Of a DNA stretch of 64,000 bases, positions 38,564 through 47,213 are shown in pieces. Within the stretch, counting starts at the first letter, position 1. Every line of letters starts with the position of its first letter. The stretch covers positions 2,643,501 to 2,707,500 of the forward strand of contig NZ_CP012945.1 in NCBI RefSeq assembly GCF_001402915.1, read 5' to 3'. A program made the position numbers and the translations under genes. Origin of the DNA: Devosia sp. A16 (lineage in GTDB: Bacteria; Pseudomonadota; Alphaproteobacteria; Rhizobiales; Devosiaceae). The notes under the pieces were generated by a model. The model worked only from the letters and a program-made list of their open reading frames with translations, had not been told where the DNA came from and made no database searches.

Positions 38564-39376
38564 ATGAACGCCGATCAAGGTCTTTTTGTGCCGCTGATCC
38601 TTGGGATTATCGAGGGCCTTACCGAATTCCTACCGGTCTCCTCGACCGCCCATATCCTGCTGGCCGGGCACTTCCTGGGCTTCAACAGTCCGGGCCGGGT
38701 GTTCGAGGTGCTGATCCAGTTGGGCGCCATCCTCGCCATCCTGGTGGTATATTTCCAGCGCCTGCTCGGCATCGCCAAAGATGCCATCGCCAGGAAACCC
38801 GGGGCTCTGCGCTTCATTCTCGGGGTCGTCCTCGCCTCGTTCCCGGCGGCCATCGCCGGCGTGCTGCTGCACGATTTCATCAAGACGGTAATCTACGAGA
38901 CCCCGGTAGTGTTCTGCGTCTCGCTGATCGTCGGCGGCATCATCCTGCTCTATGTCGACCAGCTCAAGCTCACCCCGAAGTACACCGATATCTACAATTA
39001 TCCGCCGCTGCTCTGCCTCTATATCGGGCTGTTCCAGATGCTGGCGCTGATCCCCGGGGTGTCGCGTTCGGGCTCGACCATCGTCGGCGCGCTGCTGCTC
39101 GGCACCGACAAGCGCTCGGCGGCCGAGTTCACCTTCTTCATCGCCATGCCGATCATGGGCGGGGCGTTTCTCTACGATCTCTACAAGAGCCGCGAGTTCA
39201 TCACCGCCGAACTCGGCGCCGCGGTGATCATCGGCTTCGCCGCCGCCTTCGTCACCGCATTCTTCGTGGTGCGGTACCTGCTCGACTACATCTCCCGGCA
39301 CGGCTTCGCCATCTTCGCCTACTGGCGCATCTTCGTCGGCGCCATCGGGCTATGGGGGATTTTGCTGTTTGGGTGA
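38564..39376 (+). CDS. uppP: Undecaprenyl-diphosphatase UppP (BacA)
   Basis: 270 residues with eight membrane helices. Catalytic motifs are [16 protein letters not shown] (residues 16-30) and [20 protein letters not shown]. It dephosphorylates undecaprenyl diphosphate to recycle the lipid carrier for peptidoglycan and other envelope polymers at the inner membrane. A pair of palindromic repeats follows the stop after 30 bp. Confidence 0.97.
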
Positions 39377-39531: not shown

Positions 39532-40257
39532 TCATGTAAGCGCCAGCGCCGCCTTGAACGCCCGCACCACGGCCCGGTCGGTGCGCCGGCGGGTTTCCGC
39601 GGCAAAGCCCAGCCGCACCGCCGGGGCACTGCTGGCCGGACCCGGTGAGGCGCATGAGCTGTGCACCTCGTCGACGGGGACCGCGGCGAGCAGCGCTTCG
39701 ACATTGTCGGGCGTCAGCCCCGAGCCGGCCATGACCTTGATCCGGCCACGCGCCGTGGCGAGCACGGTCGCGATGTTGTCGACCCCGTCGAGCGCCACAT
39801 GCACGCCGCCCGAGGTGAGGATGCGCTCGAACCCCAGCGCGAACGCCGCTTCCGTCGCCTCGGCGAAATCCGGCACCAGGTCGATGGCGCGGTGCAGCGT
39901 CGAGCCGAGCCCCTCCGCCTGCTGCATCAGCCGGCCCAGCACCTTGAGGTCGAGCTCACCGTTCGGCCGCGACGCGCCCAGCACCACGCCGGCAAGACCG
40001 GCGGCGCGGATCGCGTCGATGTCGCCGAGCATGGCGTCCACATCGGCATCGTCCGAGACGAAGTCGCCGCTGCGCGGCCGGACAATGGCATAGACCGGGA
40101 TCGGCGCGGCCGCCGCGAGCCGCATCAGCCCGGCGGACGGGGTCAGCCCGCCCAGTTCGAGCCCGGAACACAGTTCGATCCGGTCGCCGCCGCCGGCAAT
40201 GGCGGCTTTGAGGCTCTGCGGATCGGCGACGCAGACTTCAAGCAGGCGACGGGTCAC
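39532..40257 (-). CDS. cutC: CutC family protein
   Basis: 241 residues, TIM-barrel of the CutC family. The N-terminus LLEVCVADPQSLKAAIAGGGDRIELCSGLELGGLTPS is diagnostic. MVGADHRVxxHRAID-type elements appear as LGSTLHRAIDLVPDF, then ILTSGG and KVMAGSGLTPDNV. CutC was named for copper homeostasis in E. coli, but the evidence is weak and an enzyme role is possible. The GTG start overlaps the stop of the ROK kinase gene (GTGA), so the two are translated together. That coupling points to amino-sugar metabolism rather than copper. Confidence 0.92.
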   Translation of the reverse strand: MTRRLLEVCVADPQSLKAAIAGGGDRIELCSGLELGGLTPSAGLMRLAAAAPIPVYAIVRPRSGDFVSDDADVDAMLGDIDAIRAAGLAGVVLGASRPNGELDLKVLGRLMQQAEGLGSTLHRAIDLVPDFAEATEAAFALGFERILTSGGVHVALDGVDNIATVLATARGRIKVMAGSGLTPDNVEALLAAVPVDEVHSSCASPGPASSAPAVRLGFAAETRRRTDRAVVRAFKAALALT

Positions 40258-41168
40258 GCGGCATTCTCCACAAAACCGAGGATCGCAGCCCCGACGAGGC
40301 CGGGCTCTAGCGTGAGTCGCGAAGGCACCACCAGCGGCGCGTCGAGCCGGCGCAGGATGCGCTGGCGCACCGCTCTGTCGAGCAGCGCGATGAACTCGGG
40401 CACTTTGCCAAGGCCGCCTCCGACCGGGACGATGCCGGCGCCGACCACATTGATCACCAGCGCCAGCGGGCCGGCGAGCAGGTCGATCTGCACCTCGATG
40501 GTGCGCGCCGCCCGGGCGTCGCCGGCCAGCCAAGCTTCGACGATGGCGGTGCTGGGGAGCTCGACGCCGAAGAGGTGCTTGTGCAGCCGCTCCGTGCCGC
40601 GCGCCGCGCCGACCGTGTCGACGCAGCCGGTCTGGCCGCACCCGCAGGCAAAGCGCGGGATGGCGACGGGCGGCTCGCCTGCGGAGGTGGCGGCGACCGG
40701 CCCGTGTCCCCACTCGCCCGCAAAGCCGCCGGCGCCGTTGACGATCCGCCCGTCGATCACGATGCCGCCGCCCACCCCGGTGCCCAAGATGGCGCCGAAG
40801 ACGATGCGGTGGCCACGCCCGGCGCCTTCCACCGCCTCGGCCAGCGCGAAGCAGTCAGCATCGTTGGCGACGAATACCGGTCGGCCGAGCGCCATGGCGA
40901 GTTCGGGGCCGAGCTTGCGGCCATCGGCGCAAGGGATGTTGGCGACGGTGATGACCTCGGTGGCCGGATCGACCACCCCGGTGATCGAGATGGCGATCGG
41001 CGTGCCCTGCGGCGCGCCGGCCCGGTCGACCACGCCACGCATCGCGGCGACGAAGGCGGCGAAATCGTCGAGCGGCGTCGGCACGCGGCCGAGCGGGGTC
41101 AGTTCCGAAGCGCTGCGGGCCAGCGCCGCCTTGATCCCGGAACCGCCAATATCGAAGCAGATAATCAT
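40254..41168 (-). CDS. ROK family sugar kinase, probable N-acetylglucosamine kinase
   Basis: 304 residues. It has the ATP phosphate motif FDIGGSGIKAALA at the N-terminus, the GTGVGGGIVIDG loop, and the zinc-binding motif GHGPV...CGCGQTGCVDT, as in NagK and ManK-type ROK kinases. The catalytic Asp is in FVANDADCFALAEA. No DNA-binding domain is present, so it is an enzyme rather than a ROK repressor. In this locus the most fitting substrate is GlcNAc. The start is ATG 41168. Divergent from the LacI gene by 86 bp. Confidence 0.88.
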   Translation of the reverse strand: MIICFDIGGSGIKAALARSASELTPLGRVPTPLDDFAAFVAAMRGVVDRAGAPQGTPIAISITGVVDPATEVITVANIPCADGRKLGPELAMALGRPVFVANDADCFALAEAVEGAGRGHRIVFGAILGTGVGGGIVIDGRIVNGAGGFAGEWGHGPVAATSAGEPPVAIPRFACGCGQTGCVDTVGAARGTERLHKHLFGVELPSTAIVEAWLAGDARAARTIEVQIDLLAGPLALVINVVGAGIVPVGGGLGKVPEFIALLDRAVRQRILRRLDAPLVVPSRLTLEPGLVGAAILGFVENAA

Positions 41169-41254
41169 CACTGTTGAGTGCTTTCCAACAAGCAGGCATC
41201 TACCTTCGGCAAACGCCCCCGACTCGGTCGGCGCGAAAGGTGCGATGACGGACA

Positions 41255-42256
41255 ATGGTTGAACAGGCCCGGCAGCAGGCGACGCCCACCATCGACGATG
41301 TCGCGGCTCTCGCCGGAGTGTCCCGCGCCGTGGCCTCGCGCGCCCTGTCGGCCGAAAAACGTCCGGTTTCGGCGGAAAAGCGCGAGCGGGTGCTGCAGGC
41401 GGCGGCCGAACTCGGCTACCGCGTCAACCTCTTGGCGCAGAGCCTCACGACCAAGACGGTCAACCTCGTGGCCGTGGTGGTTAACCACATCCACGACCTC
41501 TCCGATCTCGACCTGTTCGACCAGTTGCTGGCCGAGACCCAGGCCATCGGCAAGCAGGTGATTCTCATCCGCGTCGGCTCGGTCGACAAGGTCGAAGAAT
41601 TTCTGCGCCAGGGCGTCGCCTATCATGTCGATGCGGCGCTGGTGTTTTCCGATTTCGCCGATGCCGAAACGGTACGCAGGATGTTCCGCTCCGACCTGGT
41701 GGTGATGCTCAACGGCCGGCACGACCAGCTGTCTCCGACGGTGATCCCCGACGAGGCCATGGGCATCGGCCAGGCGGTCGCCGATGCGGCGCAGCACGGA
41801 GTGAAGACCGCGGCACTGGTCACCGGACGCGCCTCGTCGCTGGTCGAGGAAGCCCGCATAGCCTCTTACCTCGCAGCGTTTCAGCGGCACGGCATAGATC
41901 TCGTCCAGACGGTCCAGGGCGACTACTCCTATCAGAGCGGCCATGCCGCAGCGGCAGCGGTGGCGGGTTTCGACTGCCCCGACGCGGTGTTCTGCACTTC
42001 CGACGCCATGGCGATGGGCATTCTAGACGTCTGCCGCGAGGACTTTCCGGGCAACCGCCCGACCCGCTTCCGGCTCTACGGCTTCGACAACCTGTCGCTC
42101 ACCGATTTCGATGCCTACCCGATCTCGTCCATCGGCTACGACAAGGCCGATTACGTGCGCCAGATGGTCCGCTTCCTTGCCGATCCCACGGCGTTTACGC
42201 CGGGCCAGGCCCCGGTGACGATCCCGACGCGGTTCGTGCCGAGAAAGACCAGTTGA
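41255..42256 (+). CDS. LacI-family transcriptional regulator of the adjacent locus
   Basis: 333 residues. The HTH and hinge are clear: TIDDVAALAGVSRAVASRALSAEKRPVSAEKRERVLQAAAELGYRVN, with a LacI-type hinge helix (NLLAQSLTTKTVNLVAVVV). A periplasmic-binding-like sensor domain follows. It is divergent from the ROK-cutC pair and lies 258 bp from the end of the ABC operon. The perfect palindrome GTGAAACCGGTTTCAC before the transporter operon has the symmetry of a LacI-family operator and is the natural target. Ligand unknown, perhaps GlcNAc or a glycosyl-asparagine. Confidence 0.92.
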   Translation: MVEQARQQATPTIDDVAALAGVSRAVASRALSAEKRPVSAEKRERVLQAAAELGYRVNLLAQSLTTKTVNLVAVVVNHIHDLSDLDLFDQLLAETQAIGKQVILIRVGSVDKVEEFLRQGVAYHVDAALVFSDFADAETVRRMFRSDLVVMLNGRHDQLSPTVIPDEAMGIGQAVADAAQHGVKTAALVTGRASSLVEEARIASYLAAFQRHGIDLVQTVQGDYSYQSGHAAAAAVAGFDCPDAVFCTSDAMAMGILDVCREDFPGNRPTRFRLYGFDNLSLTDFDAYPISSIGYDKADYVRQMVRFLADPTAFTPGQAPVTIPTRFVPRKTS

Positions 42257-42287
42257 AGTCTTCCACCCGCGTCCACCCCATCCTCGG

Positions 42288-42371
42288 TGTCACCCCGCGA
42301 AAGCGGGGCCTCCGTTTGCGATGGTGCCTCCGGCGGGAAAACAGAGGTTCCCGCTTTCGCGGGAGTGACCC
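42288..42371. repeat. Inverted repeat of the CCCGCGAAAGCGGG family, copy 2
   Basis: GTCACCCCGCGAAAGCGGGG and CCCGCTTTCGCGGGAGTGAC form the ends. The core CCTCCGTTTGCGATGGTGCC is shared with 47338-47420. Located between LacI and the ABC operon end. The rest of this 258-bp gap holds the hairpin at 42438-42463. Confidence 0.75.
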
Positions 42372-42437
42372 GGTGAGTGGCGCAAATATCTGAGGTAGTG
42401 GAGATGGCGGCTGCCACCACCACCCCCACAAATGGTT

Positions 42438-42463
42438 CCGGGCCGCCTTGGGGGACGGCCCGG
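42438..42463 (-). terminator. Hairpin downstream of the ABC transporter operon
   Basis: CCGGGCCG and CGGCCCGG are perfect 8-bp arms with a ten-base loop, 52 bp after the SBP stop. It lacks a strong U-run, so it may serve as an mRNA 3' stabiliser or weak terminator. Confidence 0.55.
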
Positions 42464-42514
42464 CAGTCGGCATGGGCGGCGGCAAAGGGAGAAGGACGCC
42501 GCCCGGCCGGTGTC

Positions 42515-43306
42515 TTACCAGAGCGCGGTCAGCGCCGGCGGGTTGGCGGTCTCGCCCCACCACTTCTTGTAGTTCGCCGCATAGGCGCCCGACTGGATGT
42601 AATCGGACACGAACATGTCGAGCCAGCGCACGAATTCCGGATCGCCCTTGGCCACGGCAATGCCGATCGGGTCGTTCGAATAGAGGCCCGGGAGGGTCAC
42701 GAGGCTCGGGTTCTTGGTGGCGAGATAGTCGAGCAGCGACGAATCCTCGATCGCCGCGTCGACGCGCTTCTGCTGCAGCTGCAGCACGCCGTCGGGCGCG
42801 AACTGGTCGACATAAACCAGCTCGGCAGTCGGTACGGCGGTCTTGATGAACGTTTCGCCGGTGGTGCCGCGGCCGACCACGATCTTCTTGCCGGCGAGGC
42901 CGGCGAGGTCGGTGATGCCCGAGTCGGCCTGGACGATGATGCGCAGTCCCGCACGGTTGTAGGGAATGGTGAAGTTCACCGACTTGGCGCGCTCGAGCGT
43001 CGCCGAGGTGTTGGCGACAACGATGTCGAGCTGGCCCGAGACCAGCATCGAGATGCGGGCGTCGCCCGACACGTCGGTGAATTCCACCGGCACGCCGAGT
43101 TTGGTGGCGATCATGTTGGCGACGTCGACGTCGTAGCCGACCGGGTTGTTCTGGTCGTCGCGGAAGCCGATCGGCTCGCCGCCCAGCGACACGCCGATGC
43201 GCACCACGTTGCGGCCGCGGATGTCGTCGAGCATGCCGGCAAAGGCCGGAACGGCCGTGGTGGCGACGAGCGCCAGCGCGGCAATTGCAGTCAGAATACG
43301 CTTCAT
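42515..43306 (-). CDS. ABC transporter substrate-binding protein (polar amino acid type)
   Basis: 263 residues. Signal peptide at 1-23 (MKRILTAIAALALVATTAVPAFA), then a family 3 solute-binding fold: RIGVSLGGEPIGFRDDQNNPVGYDVDVANMIA, ARISMLVSGQLDIVVANTSAT, GRGTTGETFIKTAVP and AYAANYKKWWG. It captures an amino-acid-like ligand in the periplasm. It is last in the operon, 19 bp after the glycosylasparaginase gene, an unusual position for a binding protein, since it usually comes first. The context suggests a ligand such as GlcNAc-asparagine. Confidence 0.92.
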   Translation of the reverse strand: MKRILTAIAALALVATTAVPAFAGMLDDIRGRNVVRIGVSLGGEPIGFRDDQNNPVGYDVDVANMIATKLGVPVEFTDVSGDARISMLVSGQLDIVVANTSATLERAKSVNFTIPYNRAGLRIIVQADSGITDLAGLAGKKIVVGRGTTGETFIKTAVPTAELVYVDQFAPDGVLQLQQKRVDAAIEDSSLLDYLATKNPSLVTLPGLYSNDPIGIAVAKGDPEFVRWLDMFVSDYIQSGAYAANYKKWWGETANPPALTALW

Positions 43307-43325
43307 GGGTTGTTCCTCTCCTTGA

Positions 43326-44243
43326 TCAGATAGTCTTCGCTGCCCGGAGTTCTGCCTCCGGCATCGAGTCGTCCCAGAGCCAGTAGCGGATCTCGCCCTG
43401 GCACCTGAAGTTCACCACCTCGTGGTTTCCCTTGGCGTCGACGGCGTGGATCACCACACCGCCCAGGAACCCCTCGGTGAGTTCATCGAGCTCGTCGACC
43501 GCGAGCTTGACTGCGTCGCTGAGCGAGTAGCCGAGCTTCATGGCGAGGACGATCGTGCGGCTGGTCGAACAGCGCATCGTCATCTCGCCGGTGTGGGTGC
43601 AGGCGGCCGCGCCATAACGGCTGTCGGCGTAGAAGCCGGCGCCGGGGATCGGGCTGTCGCCCAGCCGGCCCGGATATTTCCAGGCCCAGCCGGAGGTCGA
43701 GGTCGCCGCGTGAATGCCGCGCGTCGCGTCGGCGCTGAGATACACCGTGGTGTCCCGCACCCGCTCGGGGTCGGTGATGGTCTTCAAGAGCGGCGCCAGC
43801 GGGGTGTTGGGGAAGGCCGCCTTCTGCTCGGGCGTCATTTCCTGTTCGAGTCGTTCCCACCAGACGCGCCTGGAATCCTCGAGCAGCACGTCGTCGACCG
43901 AGAAACCGGTTTCAGTAGCGAAGCGGCGCGCCCCGGCGCCGGTCAGCATGACGTGCGGCAGCGCCTTCATCACCTCGTGGGCGAGGCGGGCCACCGGGAT
44001 GGTATCGGGCACCGCGCCGACGCTGCCGACATTGCGCGTCGTGCCGTCCATCACCGCGGCATCGCACTCCATCACGCCCAGCATGTTGGGCCAGCCGCCA
44101 TGGCCGACGCTGCGCACCTTCGTCTCGGCCTCGACCCTGGAAATGCCGGCTACCATGGCCGTCAGGCTGTCGGTTCCCTCGCGCAGCATCTCGACGGTGG
44201 TCGGGATGCCGGGCCAGCCTTCGGCATTGGCGATGAACAACAT
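43326..44243 (-). CDS. N4-(beta-N-acetylglucosaminyl)-L-asparaginase (glycosylasparaginase)
   Basis: 305 residues, Ntn-hydrolase that cleaves GlcNAc-Asn to aspartate and the sugar. Family landmarks: RSVGHGGWPNM, AAVMDGTTRNVGSVGAV, WWERLEQE, and the precursor cleavage site D164-T165 (Thr165 becomes the N-terminal nucleophile). STSGWAWKYPGRLGDSPIPG and THTGEMTMR give the substrate pocket. No signal peptide is visible, whereas many bacterial relatives are secreted, so it should act in the cytoplasm on imported substrate. It is in the ABC operon with five bases to the ATPase gene. Confidence 0.9.
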   Translation of the reverse strand: MLFIANAEGWPGIPTTVEMLREGTDSLTAMVAGISRVEAETKVRSVGHGGWPNMLGVMECDAAVMDGTTRNVGSVGAVPDTIPVARLAHEVMKALPHVMLTGAGARRFATETGFSVDDVLLEDSRRVWWERLEQEMTPEQKAAFPNTPLAPLLKTITDPERVRDTTVYLSADATRGIHAATSTSGWAWKYPGRLGDSPIPGAGFYADSRYGAAACTHTGEMTMRCSTSRTIVLAMKLGYSLSDAVKLAVDELDELTEGFLGGVVIHAVDAKGNHEVVNFRCQGEIRYWLWDDSMPEAELRAAKTI

Positions 44244-44248
44244 GATGG

Positions 44249-44983
44249 TCAGTCTTTCCGCATCTTGGAGAGAAACTGCGCGACGCGCGGCTGTGCGAGG
44301 CCGCCATCGTCGGCGAAGAACTTGTCGGTCGGCAGGTCGACCAGCAGCACGCCCTTTTCGAGAAAGACGATGCGGTTGGAGATCTGCCGCGCAAACTCGA
44401 TCTCGTGCGTGACGAACACCATGGTGGTGCCGTCCTTGGCGAGCTTGGCGAGGATATCGAGCACTTCGGCAGTCATCTCGGGGTCGAGCGCGCTGGTGAC
44501 TTCGTCGAGCAAGAGGTAACGCGGTTTCATCGCCAGCGCCCGGCAGATGCCGACGCGCTGCCGCTGTCCGCCCGAAAGCTGCGCCGGGTAGGCGTCGGCG
44601 CGATCGCCCAGGCCCACCTGCGCGAGCAGTGCCCGGCCTTCGGCCTCGGCCTCCGCCTTACCCCGCTTCAGCACCTCGACCGGCGCGAGCGTGATGTTCT
44701 GCAGCGCCGTCATGTGCGGGTAGAGGTTGAACAGCTGGAACACCGTGCCGCTGCGCTTGCGCGCCTCGGCCAGTTCCCTGGGCTTCGACACATCGAAATC
44801 GTCGACGGTGATCTTGCCGGCATTGAGCTTTTCGAGCCCGTTGATGCAGCGGATCAGCGTCGACTTGCCCGAACCGGACGAGCCCAGGATCGACACCACT
44901 TCCCCCGGGTTCACCGTCAGGTTCACCCCGTCGAGGACGGTGACCGGGCCAAAGGCCTTCTTGACGTTTTCGACTTTCAGCAT
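44249..44983 (-). CDS. Amino acid ABC transporter ATP-binding protein
   Basis: 244 residues. Walker A GSSGSGKST, signature LSGGQRQRVGIC, Walker B YLLLDEVTSALDPE (DEV where the family mostly has DEP), and the H-loop VFVTHEI. Highly similar in layout to GlnQ/HisP-type ATPases. Three bases separate it from the permease gene. It powers the two permeases on the cytoplasmic side. Confidence 0.95.
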   Translation of the reverse strand: MLKVENVKKAFGPVTVLDGVNLTVNPGEVVSILGSSGSGKSTLIRCINGLEKLNAGKITVDDFDVSKPRELAEARKRSGTVFQLFNLYPHMTALQNITLAPVEVLKRGKAEAEAEGRALLAQVGLGDRADAYPAQLSGGQRQRVGICRALAMKPRYLLLDEVTSALDPEMTAEVLDILAKLAKDGTTMVFVTHEIEFARQISNRIVFLEKGVLLVDLPTDKFFADDGGLAQPRVAQFLSKMRKD

Positions 44984-44986
44984 GCT

Positions 44987-45658
44987 TCAGAGGCCCCGGA
45001 AGGCGCTGTGCGCCCGCAGACGTTTTTCGGCCCAGGCGCCCAGCGAGGCGACCGCCTTGGCGGCGAGGTAGTAGAGGATGCCGACCGCCGTCCACACGAT
45101 GAACGGCTTCAGCGTCCTCAGGTTGAGCGTCGCGCCGATCTTGGCGAGGTCGAGCACCCCGATCACCGAAATCAGCGAGGTGACCTGCAACTGGTTGACC
45201 AGCAGCGCCGTCAGCGGCCCGATCGAGAAGGCGGCCGCCTGCGGCGCGATCACGTGGCGCAGCACCTGCCAGCGGCTGAGCCCGAACACCCGGGCCGCCT
45301 CGACCTGGTCGCGGCCGATGGATTCGATCGACGACACCGCGATGACGTAGACGAACGCCGCGGTATTGGCCGAGAGCGTCACGATCGCCGCTTGCACCGG
45401 CGTCACGTTGACGTGGAAGAATGCCGGAAAGCCGAAGAACACCAGGAACAGCTGCACCAGCACCGGCGAGTTCTTGAGTACTTCGGCGACGAAGGTGATG
45501 ATCTGCATCAATACCGGTACGCGGTAGAAGCGGACGATGCCCCAGATCACCCCGATGGCGAGCCCGATCAGCGAAGTGACGAGGAACAGCCCGACTGTGA
45601 CCCCGAGGCCCTGCAGCAACAGCACGATGTCGTAAGGGGTGAACTCGGCGTAACGCAT
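44987..45658 (-). CDS. Amino acid ABC transporter permease, second subunit
   Basis: 223 residues with about five membrane helices and the EAA loop QVEAARVFGLSRWQVLRHVIAPQA. Start ATG 45658 overlaps the TGA stop of the preceding permease by one base (TGATG). HisMQ family (LKNSPVLVQLFLVFFG). Confidence 0.95.
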   Translation of the reverse strand: MRYAEFTPYDIVLLLQGLGVTVGLFLVTSLIGLAIGVIWGIVRFYRVPVLMQIITFVAEVLKNSPVLVQLFLVFFGFPAFFHVNVTPVQAAIVTLSANTAAFVYVIAVSSIESIGRDQVEAARVFGLSRWQVLRHVIAPQAAAFSIGPLTALLVNQLQVTSLISVIGVLDLAKIGATLNLRTLKPFIVWTAVGILYYLAAKAVASLGAWAEKRLRAHSAFRGL

Positions 45659-46329
45659 CAGCTCACCTGGGGCTGGAGGTCGCGGTTGAGGCGACGATGG
45701 AGCAGGGTGACGCCAAGCGACACCAGGTAGGTGAGCGCGGCATAGACCACCAGCAGCACCACATAGACCTCGAACGGCCGGAAGGTGTCGGAGGCGACGA
45801 TCTTGGCCTGGCCGGTCAGCTCGTTGAGGGTGATGGTCGACAGGATCGACGAGGTGAGGATCATGTTGATCAGCACCGAGCCGAGCGGCCGCACCGAGGT
45901 GCGGAGCGCGATCGGCAAGACGATACGGGTGAAGGTGATGCGCCTCGACAGCCCGCTGACCTCGGCGGCTTCGAGAATGCCGTTGTCGATGGCGAGGATA
46001 CCGGCGCGGATCGCATCGGAGGCATAGGCGCCGCCGGCGATGGAGAGCGCGATCACCCCGGTGGTGAAGGCGTCGATATAGATGCCGATCTCGGGCAGGC
46101 CGTAATAGAAGAAGAACAGCTGCACGATGAACGGAATGTTGCGGAACAGGTCGACATAGAGGAAGGCCAGCCGGCCGATCCACTTGTTCGCCGAGGTGCG
46201 GGCGATGGCGACCAGCATACCCAGGATCACGCTGCCCACGAGCGCCAGGGCGCAGGCTTCGAGCGTCAATAGCGCCCCCTCGGCGAGGAAGCCGAGATGC
46301 GGAATGAGAATGGTGAGATCGAGCAGCAC
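45658..46329 (-). CDS. Amino acid ABC transporter permease, first subunit
   Basis: 223 residues, HisMQ family, with five membrane helices. DLFRNIPFIVQLFFFYYGLPEIG and the EAA loop EAAEVSGLSRRITFTRIVLPIA are typical. It is the first gene of the operon permease-permease-ATPase-glycosylasparaginase-binding protein. The promoter and LacI-type operator lie within 57 bp of its ATG. A GGAGGG site overlaps the end of the leader. Confidence 0.95.
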   Translation of the reverse strand: MLLDLTILIPHLGFLAEGALLTLEACALALVGSVILGMLVAIARTSANKWIGRLAFLYVDLFRNIPFIVQLFFFYYGLPEIGIYIDAFTTGVIALSIAGGAYASDAIRAGILAIDNGILEAAEVSGLSRRITFTRIVLPIALRTSVRPLGSVLINMILTSSILSTITLNELTGQAKIVASDTFRPFEVYVVLLVVYAALTYLVSLGVTLLHRRLNRDLQPQVS

Positions 46330-46344
46330 GTGCCCTCCCGCCGA

Positions 46345-46360
46345 GTGAAACCGGTTTCAC
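46345..46360. promoter_or_regulatory. LacI-type operator, perfect palindrome GTGAAACCGGTTTCAC
   Basis: The 16-base sequence is fully symmetric about a central CG, with GTGAAACC half-sites. LacI-family operators have this form (AAACC-CG-type centres). It begins 15 bp upstream of the permease ATG and directly follows the -10 region, so a bound repressor would block transcription. The nearest candidate is the LacI gene at 41255-42256. Confidence 0.85.
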
Positions 46361-46386
46361 ATTATGTCACGGTTCGGCGATGTCAA
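46361..46386 (-). promoter_or_regulatory. Sigma-70-type promoter of the ABC operon
   Basis: On the minus strand TTGACA (46386-46381) is a perfect -35. CATAAT (46366-46361) resembles a -10 at 14 bp spacing. A shift of the -10 to TAATGT gives 16 bp with a poorer match. The operator follows immediately. Confidence 0.6.
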
Positions 46387-46553
46387 GCGGCCTCTGCGAC
46401 CTTTCCGGGGCGGGAGTTGGCTCGGCGGGGACCGGCGCACACGCCGCCGTGATCGGCATTGGCCGCCAAGTGTGACCGCAATGCACTCGACAAGTGCCAT
46501 GGCTTTTTGCTGGTAGACACCTTGATATTGCCACCCTTGTTGCGAGACCCGTT

Positions 46554-47213
46554 TTGACCACCCGCCGCCTGTTCCTGATCGGGAGTGCCGCTCTGGCGCT
46601 CAGTGCCTGTTCCTCCACCGGCAAGCGCGACCTCAGCGCGCGGACCAACGTCATCCAGGTCGATGAGCCGTGGGCCAGCTATTACTCGATGAAGACCGAC
46701 GAGCCGTTTCCGGTGCCGGGCATAGATATCCGCAAGATCCCGCAGCAGTTCTGGCGCCAGGAGGTCGATTATGCCGGCGGCGAGAAGCCGGGCACCATCG
46801 TCGTCAACACCACCGAGCGTTTCCTCTACCTGGTGCAGCCGGGCGGCCGGGCGCTGCGTTACGGCGTCGGCGTCGGGCGCGAGGAAGGGCTCAACTTCCG
46901 CGGCTCGGCGGTAATCGCCCGCAAGGCCGAGTGGCCGCGCTGGACCCCGACCGCCAACATGATCAAGACCCAGCCCGAGCGCTACGGCCCGGTGGCCGGC
47001 GGCCTCGAGCCTGGCCTCAAGAACCCGCTCGGCCCGCGCGCCCTCTATCTCTACCGCAACGGCAAGGACACGCATTTCCGCCTGCACGGCACGCTCGAGC
47101 CTTACACCATCGGCCAGTCGGTCTCGTCGGGCTGCATTCGCCTGATCAACCAGGACATCATCGACCTCTACAGCCGCGTCCCCACCGGCACCCGGGTGAT
47201 CGTCACCGGGTGA
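46554..47213 (+). CDS. L,D-transpeptidase lipoprotein (YkuD domain)
   Basis: 219 residues from TTG 46554 (MTTRRLFLIGSAALALSAC), a lipoprotein signal with lipobox LSAC, Cys19. An ATG at 46494 in the same frame adds 20 residues that look non-native. The YkuD domain shows HGTLEPYTIGQSVSSGCIRL, with the catalytic His and the Cys in SGCIR. It cross-links peptidoglycan or attaches proteins to it in the periplasm. It has a divergent promoter region shared with the ABC operon. Confidence 0.9.
   Translation: MTTRRLFLIGSAALALSACSSTGKRDLSARTNVIQVDEPWASYYSMKTDEPFPVPGIDIRKIPQQFWRQEVDYAGGEKPGTIVVNTTERFLYLVQPGGRALRYGVGVGREEGLNFRGSAVIARKAEWPRWTPTANMIKTQPERYGPVAGGLEPGLKNPLGPRALYLYRNGKDTHFRLHGTLEPYTIGQSVSSGCIRLINQDIIDLYSRVPTGTRVIVTG

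What the first reader, a model, noticed from the sequence alone, without database searches (positions are those of the whole stretch)
39532..46386. Predicted GlcNAc-asparagine uptake and breakdown locus
One operon encodes two HisMQ permeases, an ATPase, a cytoplasmic glycosylasparaginase (D164-T165 cleavage site) and a binding protein. Nearby are a zinc-motif ROK kinase, CutC translated with it, and a LacI regulator. The set fits import of GlcNAc-Asn (from glycoprotein turnover), cleavage to Asp and GlcNAc, and phosphorylation of GlcNAc. The absence of a signal peptide on the asparaginase agrees with intracellular cleavage. I know of no described system joining these parts.
Basis: inference. 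Interest (0 to 1): 0.8.

Follow-up and report, generated by a model that had tools for sequence, protein, structure and literature searches.

The report
Sugar-asparagine uptake operon with CutC
Soil bacteria related to Devosia carry a conserved set of genes that most likely imports the sugar-asparagine stub left when glycoproteins are digested and splits it for food, and the set hints at a real job for CutC, a widespread protein long labelled as a copper protein.

Summary
Two HisMQ-type permeases, an ATPase, a leaderless glycosylasparaginase-like Ntn-hydrolase (D164-T165) and a family-3 binding protein form one operon in a Devosia genome; a LacI gene and a ROK-CutC pair follow. In 67 of 69 loci with enough flank the enzyme sits with all four transporter genes, in alpha- and betaproteobacteria. 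A perfect palindrome, TGAAACCGGTTTCA, lies just upstream and occurs exactly once in the 5.03 Mb genome. Of 78 assessable loci 73 keep it with at most one mismatch; the five that do not show no LacI gene (one of those contigs ends early).

The GlcNAc-Asn reading is the best available but unproven. Support: AGA-type motifs, an amino-acid anchor in the binding protein, a NagK-like ROK, and one relative lineage with the enzyme beside nagA, GH20 and NagK genes. The enzyme is a sister subfamily, not canonical AGA. A GlcNAc-Asn pathway with AGA plus ROK kinase is published (Lactobacillus casei alf-2); the ABC route, LacI control and CutC were not found in print here.

New: CutC repeatedly adjoins glycosylasparaginases across Pseudomonadota (11 of 19 genomes with both).

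The parts
46346..46359 (.). TGAAACCGGTTTCA, predicted LacI-family operator; its first base lies 30 bp before the PermA start codon
   Evidence: perfect 14-bp palindrome; one exact copy in 5.03 Mb; at most one mismatch in 73 of 78 assessable loci, window included
45658..46329 (-). PermA, HisMQ-type ABC permease
   Evidence: PF00528; TIGR01726 105.7 bits, cut-off 42.2
44987..45658 (-). PermB, HisMQ-type ABC permease
   Evidence: PF00528; TIGR01726 63.7 bits, cut-off 42.2 (scanned from its second codon)
44249..44983 (-). ABC ATPase, GlnQ/HisP type
   Evidence: PF00005; best NCBIfam GlnQ 273 bits, below its cut-off 379
43326..44243 (-). cytoplasmic glycosylasparaginase-like Ntn-hydrolase, predicted autocleavage between D164 and T165
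43901..43914 (.). operator-like 14-mer inside the asparaginase gene (one mismatch), possible auxiliary operator
   Evidence: not corrected for relatedness
42515..43306 (-). periplasmic family-3 solute-binding protein with amino-acid anchor residues R106 and D188
   Evidence: PF00497 117 bits; R106 and D188 in 79 of 79
41255..42256 (+). LacI-family regulator
   Evidence: PF00356, PF13377; its presence tracks the operator
40254..41168 (-). ROK sugar kinase, NagK-like, zinc motif C175-G-C177-GQTG-C182
   Evidence: PF00480 161 bits; best NCBIfam PRK13310 NagK 194.6 bits, below cut-off 380 (scanned with three more residues); GlcNAc kinases among the three best solved relatives
39532..40257 (-). CutC family protein, overlapping ROK by four bases
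   Evidence: PF03932 227 bits; present in all 38 of 69 loci that hold this ROK

Best explanation
The operon is a dedicated uptake and breakdown route for N4-GlcNAc-asparagine or a very similar N-glycosyl-asparagine, the stub left after glycoprotein digestion. The SBP grips the alpha-amino-acid end (inferred from R106 and D188) and HisMQP brings the compound in. The cytoplasmic hydrolase, activated by cleavage before T165, releases aspartate and 1-amino-GlcNAc. That loses ammonia to give GlcNAc, which ROK phosphorylates; GlcNAc-6-P then enters the genome's NagA and NagB-II. LacI represses the operon through TGAAACCGGTTTCA and is released by an intermediate. CutC most likely works on the sugar product between cleavage and phosphorylation. 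Shown here: gene content, conservation, operator, motifs and gene associations. Inferred: the substrate, every reaction, repression by LacI and the role of CutC.
Against: No ligand or activity was tested. The enzyme is only 32% identical on average to canonical AGAs, and 29% to isoaspartyl-peptidase types. The STW motif is absent, and the Gly after the oxyanion Thr is His in 14 of 19. This ROK and CutC are absent from 30 of the 69 loci. No operator (up to 3 mismatches, 260 bp) was counted upstream of ROK in any locus, so shared regulation is not shown. ROK scores below the NagK equivalog cut-off. The SBP evidence says amino acid, not sugar. The active-site stretch 187-198 of the model is low in confidence.
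Confidence: 0.65

Rival explanations
1. The substrate is another N4-substituted asparagine or a beta-aspartyl dipeptide, such as the beta-Asp-Arg of cyanophycin, and the operon is a nitrogen-scavenging route; ROK-CutC is an unrelated neighbour for free GlcNAc.
For: The transporter is of the polar amino acid type. The SBP keeps the amino-acid anchor. The same protein superfamily holds isoaspartyl peptidases. This ROK and CutC are missing from 30 of 69 loci and no operator was found before ROK.
Against: Cleavage and TSTSG motifs are AGA-like, not isoaspartyl-peptidase-like. In one relative lineage the enzyme lies with nagA, GH20 and NagK-like genes and a sugar transporter. ROK-CutC sits with the operon in two different arrangements.
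Confidence: 0.2
2. The route takes up a different sugar-amino acid conjugate, for example Asn bearing glucose, GalNAc or a short oligosaccharide, or small glycopeptides.
For: Family-3 SBPs for sugar-amino acid conjugates exist: the deoxyfructosyl-amino-acid binding protein 5l9o is among the matches, E 5e-18. The active-site neighbourhood differs from canonical AGA. L. casei AlfH needs a fucose on its substrate (PMC6960285).
Against: The kinase and the neighbours in L040 are GlcNAc-type.
Confidence: 0.12
3. A loose neighbourhood kept together by inheritance, with no joint pathway.
For: Most of the 80 named loci come from Rhizobiales.
Against: The set recurs in Massilia and Duganella with ROK-CutC moved to the front of the operon. 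The operator is kept where LacI is present and is not found in the five loci without a detected LacI.
Confidence: 0.03

Closest known systems
Lactobacillus casei alf-2 cluster (PMC6960285; abstract and passages seen)
   Same: glycosylasparaginase AsnA2, ROK GlcNAc kinase SugK, a permease and a transcriptional regulator; GlcNAc-Asn split inside the cell to Asp and 1-amino-GlcNAc, then GlcNAc to the kinase
   Different: MFS permease that needs a fucosyl group, fucosidase AlfC, GntR regulator, aspartate decarboxylase; the paper's main text holds neither 'ABC transporter' nor 'CutC'; GlcNAc-Asn itself did not support growth
Flavobacterium glycosylasparaginase (PDB 9gaf, 1p4k, 2gl9) and human AGA (1apy)
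   Different: 24-26% identical in the structural alignment; no STW motif; Gly to His after the oxyanion Thr; no export signal
Loci with canonical AGA beside CutC in other families (L161-L170)
   Same: glycosylasparaginase and CutC side by side, often with a sugar kinase; GH85 and a GH2 enzyme in L161, GH92 in L168
   Different: the seven such enzymes aligned all carry a twin-arginine-like leader; no HisMQ permease match among the called genes; a TonB-dependent receptor lies near in L170
Polar amino acid ABC importers (GlnHPQ, HisJQMP) and deoxyfructosyl-amino-acid or opine binding proteins
   Same: two HEQRo permeases, GlnQ-type ATPase, family-3 SBP with the same anchor residues
   Different: an intracellular hydrolase gene sits between ATPase and SBP

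Membership tests
Ntn-hydrolase T2 / Asparaginase_2 (PF01112) | profile match over the gathering score | tested here: met
   181.2 bits, cut-off 27
Glycosylasparaginase (AGA) | Asp-Thr autocleavage site and T-S-G motif | tested here: met
   (R/K)DT and TSTSG
Glycosylasparaginase (AGA) | substrate-anchor Arg and Asp, and oxyanion Thr-Gly (roles recalled) | tested here: inconclusive
   R193, D196 and T216 invariant; the Gly is His in 14 of 19 and Gly in 5
Glycosylasparaginase (AGA) | N-terminal STW motif | tested here: not met
   ANxE or similar in its place; so filed as an AGA-like sister subfamily, not as canonical AGA
Glycosylasparaginase (AGA) | hydrolysis of GlcNAc-Asn | not testable with these tools
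   needs an assay
Isoaspartyl peptidase / L-asparaginase (IaaA) | Gly-Thr cleavage site and TSTGG motif | tested here: not met
   DT and TSTSG; NCBIfam PRK10226 102 bits, cut-off 567
Polar amino acid (HisMQP-type) ABC importer | two HEQRo-type permeases, family-3 SBP and GlnQ/HisP-type ATPase in one operon | tested here: met
   TIGR01726 over cut-off in both permeases, PF00497, PF00005
GlcNAc kinase NagK (ROK, PRK13310) | curated equivalog score | tested here: not met
   194.6 bits, cut-off 380, though it is the best family; that it works like NagK remains likely
ROK family (PF00480) | profile match and zinc motif | tested here: met
   161.3 bits, cut-off 22.9; cysteines conserved
CutC family (PF03932) | profile match over the gathering score | tested here: met
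   227.4 bits, cut-off 23.3
L. casei alf-2 type 6'-fucosyl-GlcNAc-Asn system | AlfH-type MFS permease and AlfC fucosidase in the cluster | tested here: not met
   neither is among the eight genes scanned; the locus may work like it, but is not one

The most novel reading that the evidence does not exclude
CutC is not, or not only, a copper protein. It is an amino-sugar catabolic enzyme that acts between glycosylasparaginase and the sugar kinase, most simply by hydrolysing the glycosylamine 1-amino-GlcNAc, or by interconverting anomers, in a neutral cytoplasm where the spontaneous step is slow. On the CutC tree the link to AGA changed several times, and the kinase beside the pair belongs to three different families (ROK, NagK_SO3507-type, Glk-type).
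Probability: 0.4. Interest if true: 0.85.

Novelty: new variant of a known kind. Interest (0 to 1): 0.6.

Why it matters
If right, it gives many soil and plant-associated alpha- and betaproteobacteria a route for eating the sugar-asparagine stubs of plant, fungal and animal glycoproteins. It supplies a binding protein whose ligand can be tested directly, and a LacI regulator with a predicted site. The recurring trio of sugar kinase, glycosylasparaginase and CutC also makes an old question testable: what CutC, found from bacteria to humans (recalled) and named for copper, really does.

Tried and rejected
Isoaspartyl-peptidase identity: rejected on motifs and on the ranking of sequence and fold matches, but 3 Z units is not decisive. 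The first tree had six wrongly extracted rows and was discarded; one search replaced it, with a quick method that itself warns of long branches meeting. The first gene maps picked antisense ORFs in many loci, and the second missed the enzyme in some (L038, L040, L045, L093, L096, L107, L113); the tallies therefore rest on tblastn. The L082 operator row is a coordinate artefact (no upstream DNA on that contig) and was dropped, so 78 of 79 loci count. An operator upstream of ROK was looked for within 260 bp, up to 3 mismatches: none counted; upstream of LacI 8 loci had such a match (the number of loci tested for each was not printed). No absence from a fold list is used as evidence. Structure prediction of SBP, ROK or CutC was not run.

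Literature for a CutC-asparaginase or CutC-amino-sugar link. Searches listed only 20 of 330 and 15 of 150 papers. Of one search's 19 papers I opened passages of three and judged 16 by title and abstract start. PMC5700972: a predicted network links VirK with CutC and an asparaginase, and an asparaginase lies near the Xanthomonas nix N-glycan cluster. PMC7593943 names CutC and asparaginases separately. PMC4082486 has no CutC in its main text. The Xanthomonas N-glycan papers PMC2832512 and PMC4358245 are not held.

The test of CutC neighbourhoods is partly circular: the query panel came in part from tested loci (window, L161, L162, L165, L168, L199, L206). The last 38 test loci gave panel matches in only 2. 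The 40 control regions were placed by hand at other positions of 40 of the 69 genomes.
Full report
WHAT IS THERE. The window is part of one 5.03 Mb contig. Its nearest named relatives by this enzyme are Devosia, 96% identical. On the minus strand lie PermA, PermB, an ATPase, an Asparaginase_2 protein and a family-3 binding protein; a LacI gene lies on the plus strand; then, again on the minus strand, ROK and CutC, overlapping by four bases. Inside the five-gene run the spacing goes from a one-base overlap to 19 bases.

HOW CONSERVED. A search of 297 genomes of the order found matches in 37. In 19 of these, the window's own included, the best match had E of 6e-92 or better; the next best genome had 1e-24. 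A scan of a collection of 84,980 species genomes confirmed 461 relatives, of which only the best 80 were kept, so the counts below describe the nearest part of the family. Over the window plus these 80 loci, 69 have enough flank on both sides. Components were counted within 7 kb above set identities (ROK 45%, CutC 35%, others 45-65%). In 67 of 69 the enzyme sits with both permeases, ATPase and SBP; in 63 of 69 LacI is there too; ROK and CutC are both there in 38; CutC alone in one (L084); ROK alone in none; neither in 30. Three of those 30 loci or their close kin (L087, L088, L094) carry a different, 26-28% identical ROK-like gene past LacI. The exceptions are L091 (LacI, ROK and CutC but no transporter) and L129 (a sugar ABC transporter and a GH20-like gene instead). 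In Massilia and Duganella the order is ROK-CutC-PermA-PermB-ATPase-enzyme-SBP; in Devosia and many other alphaproteobacteria ROK-CutC follows a convergent LacI. The set has been rearranged and kept.

REGULATION. TGAAACCGGTTTCA lies at 46346-46359, its first base 30 bases before the PermA start codon. It occurs once, exactly, in the genome; with one mismatch it occurs twice more, one copy inside the enzyme's own gene at 43901-43914; the reversed-pattern control gave none. In 79 loci with PermA (window included), 64 have an exact copy within 150 bp upstream and 9 have one mismatch. L082 cannot be judged. L104 has two mismatches, L110 three, and L099, L103 and L125 six. These five are also loci without a detected LacI gene, though the L125 contig ends 1.8 kb downstream; L054 has the site but its contig ends before LacI would come. 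The intragenic site is unusual: the Gly113 codon is GGT in 43 of 80, against 248 of 2295 other glycines of the same genes. But only 12 of 81 loci come within one mismatch there and 27 within two, and relatedness was not corrected for.

SUBSTRATE EVIDENCE. (a) The SBP keeps the Arg and Asp (R106, D188; 79 of 79) that hold the alpha-carboxylate and alpha-amino groups in this protein family (roles recalled); GlcNAc-Asn has both groups free. (b) Of the ROK's three best solved relatives two are named GlcNAc kinase (7p7i, 4db3) and one putative regulator protein (2ap1). (d) The own genome has a GntR gene, a nagB-II-like gene (302 bits, below its cut-off of 430) and nagA (302 bits, over its cut-off) together elsewhere, and a second nagA-like gene over the cut-off, so released GlcNAc-6-P has somewhere to go.

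CUTC. In 398 Pseudomonadota genomes CutC occurs in 69 and Asparaginase_2 in 104. I took matches that start at profile positions 28-33 as AGA-type; partial and half matches (G525, G248 and others) were left out, and the list ends with 'more matches are not listed'. By that cut 25 genomes have one. Of these, 19 also have CutC (Fisher p 3e-11, relatedness ignored), and in 11 of the 19 the two matches lie within 5 kb, in 9 within 320 bases. The 11 come from five families, five of them from one (f89). Eight of the 19 have the genes apart, and 6 of the 25 have no CutC. Neighbours in the 11 loci: a NagK_SO3507-like kinase, then AGA, then CutC (L162); CutC, a GH85 endo-N-acetylglucosaminidase, AGA and a NagK_SO3507-like kinase, with a GH2 enzyme bearing mannosidase-type domains (L161); Glk-type kinase, AGA and CutC (L165-L169), with a GH92 in L168. 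With the window's ROK, three kinase families take the same place. On a quick CutC tree of 57 chosen rows (21 near AGA) the label 'near AGA' needs 7 changes, at least 4 forced by starred branches; the L084 CutC belongs to another lineage (68% identical to a gene of family f23) and so was probably recruited separately. Beyond AGA, four loci hold AgaS, NagA, ROK and CutC, three of them also GatZ (L195, L197, L199, L247), which looks like GalNAc or GlcNAc breakdown. Overall 22 of 69 CutC loci have a panel gene within 6 kb, against 3 of 40 control regions (p 0.004); the panel is partly circular, and 36 of the last 38 loci had none. So the link is strong in some lineages and absent in others.

WHY CUTC MIGHT BE NEEDED (inference). 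Glycosylasparaginase releases 1-amino-GlcNAc. The L. casei paper says that this compound is not metabolizable and is unstable at acidic pH, which suits lactobacilli (PMC6960285, passages). A neutral-cytoplasm bacterium may need help. In E. coli, removing cutC also removes the MicL small RNA promoter (PMC8216713, passages), so mutant phenotypes there say little about the protein. No paper that I opened gives CutC an amino-sugar role; the listings showed none by title or abstract start, and subscription papers are mostly not held.

VERDICT. The locus is real and conserved, and its transporter-enzyme operon appears to be regulated as a unit. It is a new variant of a known kind, the L. casei GlcNAc-Asn pathway. 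The most surprising thread is CutC.

Noticed in passing
L195, L197, L199, L247: CutC in a cluster with AgaS, a NagK-like ROK and NagA, and with GatZ in three of the four, without a glycosylasparaginase within 6 kb; suggests a wider amino-sugar role for CutC.
   Followed up: partly
window 43901-43914: Operator-like 14-mer inside the asparaginase gene; the rarer Gly codon GGT is enriched there in relatives (43 of 80 against 248 of 2295), perhaps an auxiliary LacI site 2.4 kb from the main one.
   Followed up: partly
L084: Mesorhizobium sp. LHD-90 carries a CutC of another lineage between SBP and LacI, without ROK: probably a separate recruitment of CutC into this operon.
   Followed up: yes
L129: Mesorhizobium albiziae: the enzyme lies with a sugar ABC transporter, a Gfo/Idh gene and a GH20-like gene instead of HisMQP.
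   Followed up: no
L046, L047, L048: A more distant clade of the enzyme (about 50% identical) is followed by a family-3 binding protein gene (28-29% identical to the window SBP) with no PermA or PermB match in the stretch.
   Followed up: no
L040:6743-7993: Gfo/Idh oxidoreductase gene at the head of the sugar transporter genes beside ROK and the enzyme; role unknown.
   Followed up: no
L208 (own genome 2163799-2163812): Another near-copy (one mismatch) of the operator elsewhere in the genome; neighbouring genes not examined.
   Followed up: no
L087, L088, L094: Aureimonas loci have a different ROK-like gene (26-28% identical to the L040 ROK) downstream of LacI; it could be a regulator or a replacement kinase.
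   Followed up: no
window 38564-39376 and 46494-47213: UppP and an L,D-transpeptidase-like gene flank the locus; among the mapped relatives this flank was seen in Devosia loci; taken as unrelated neighbours.
   Followed up: partly
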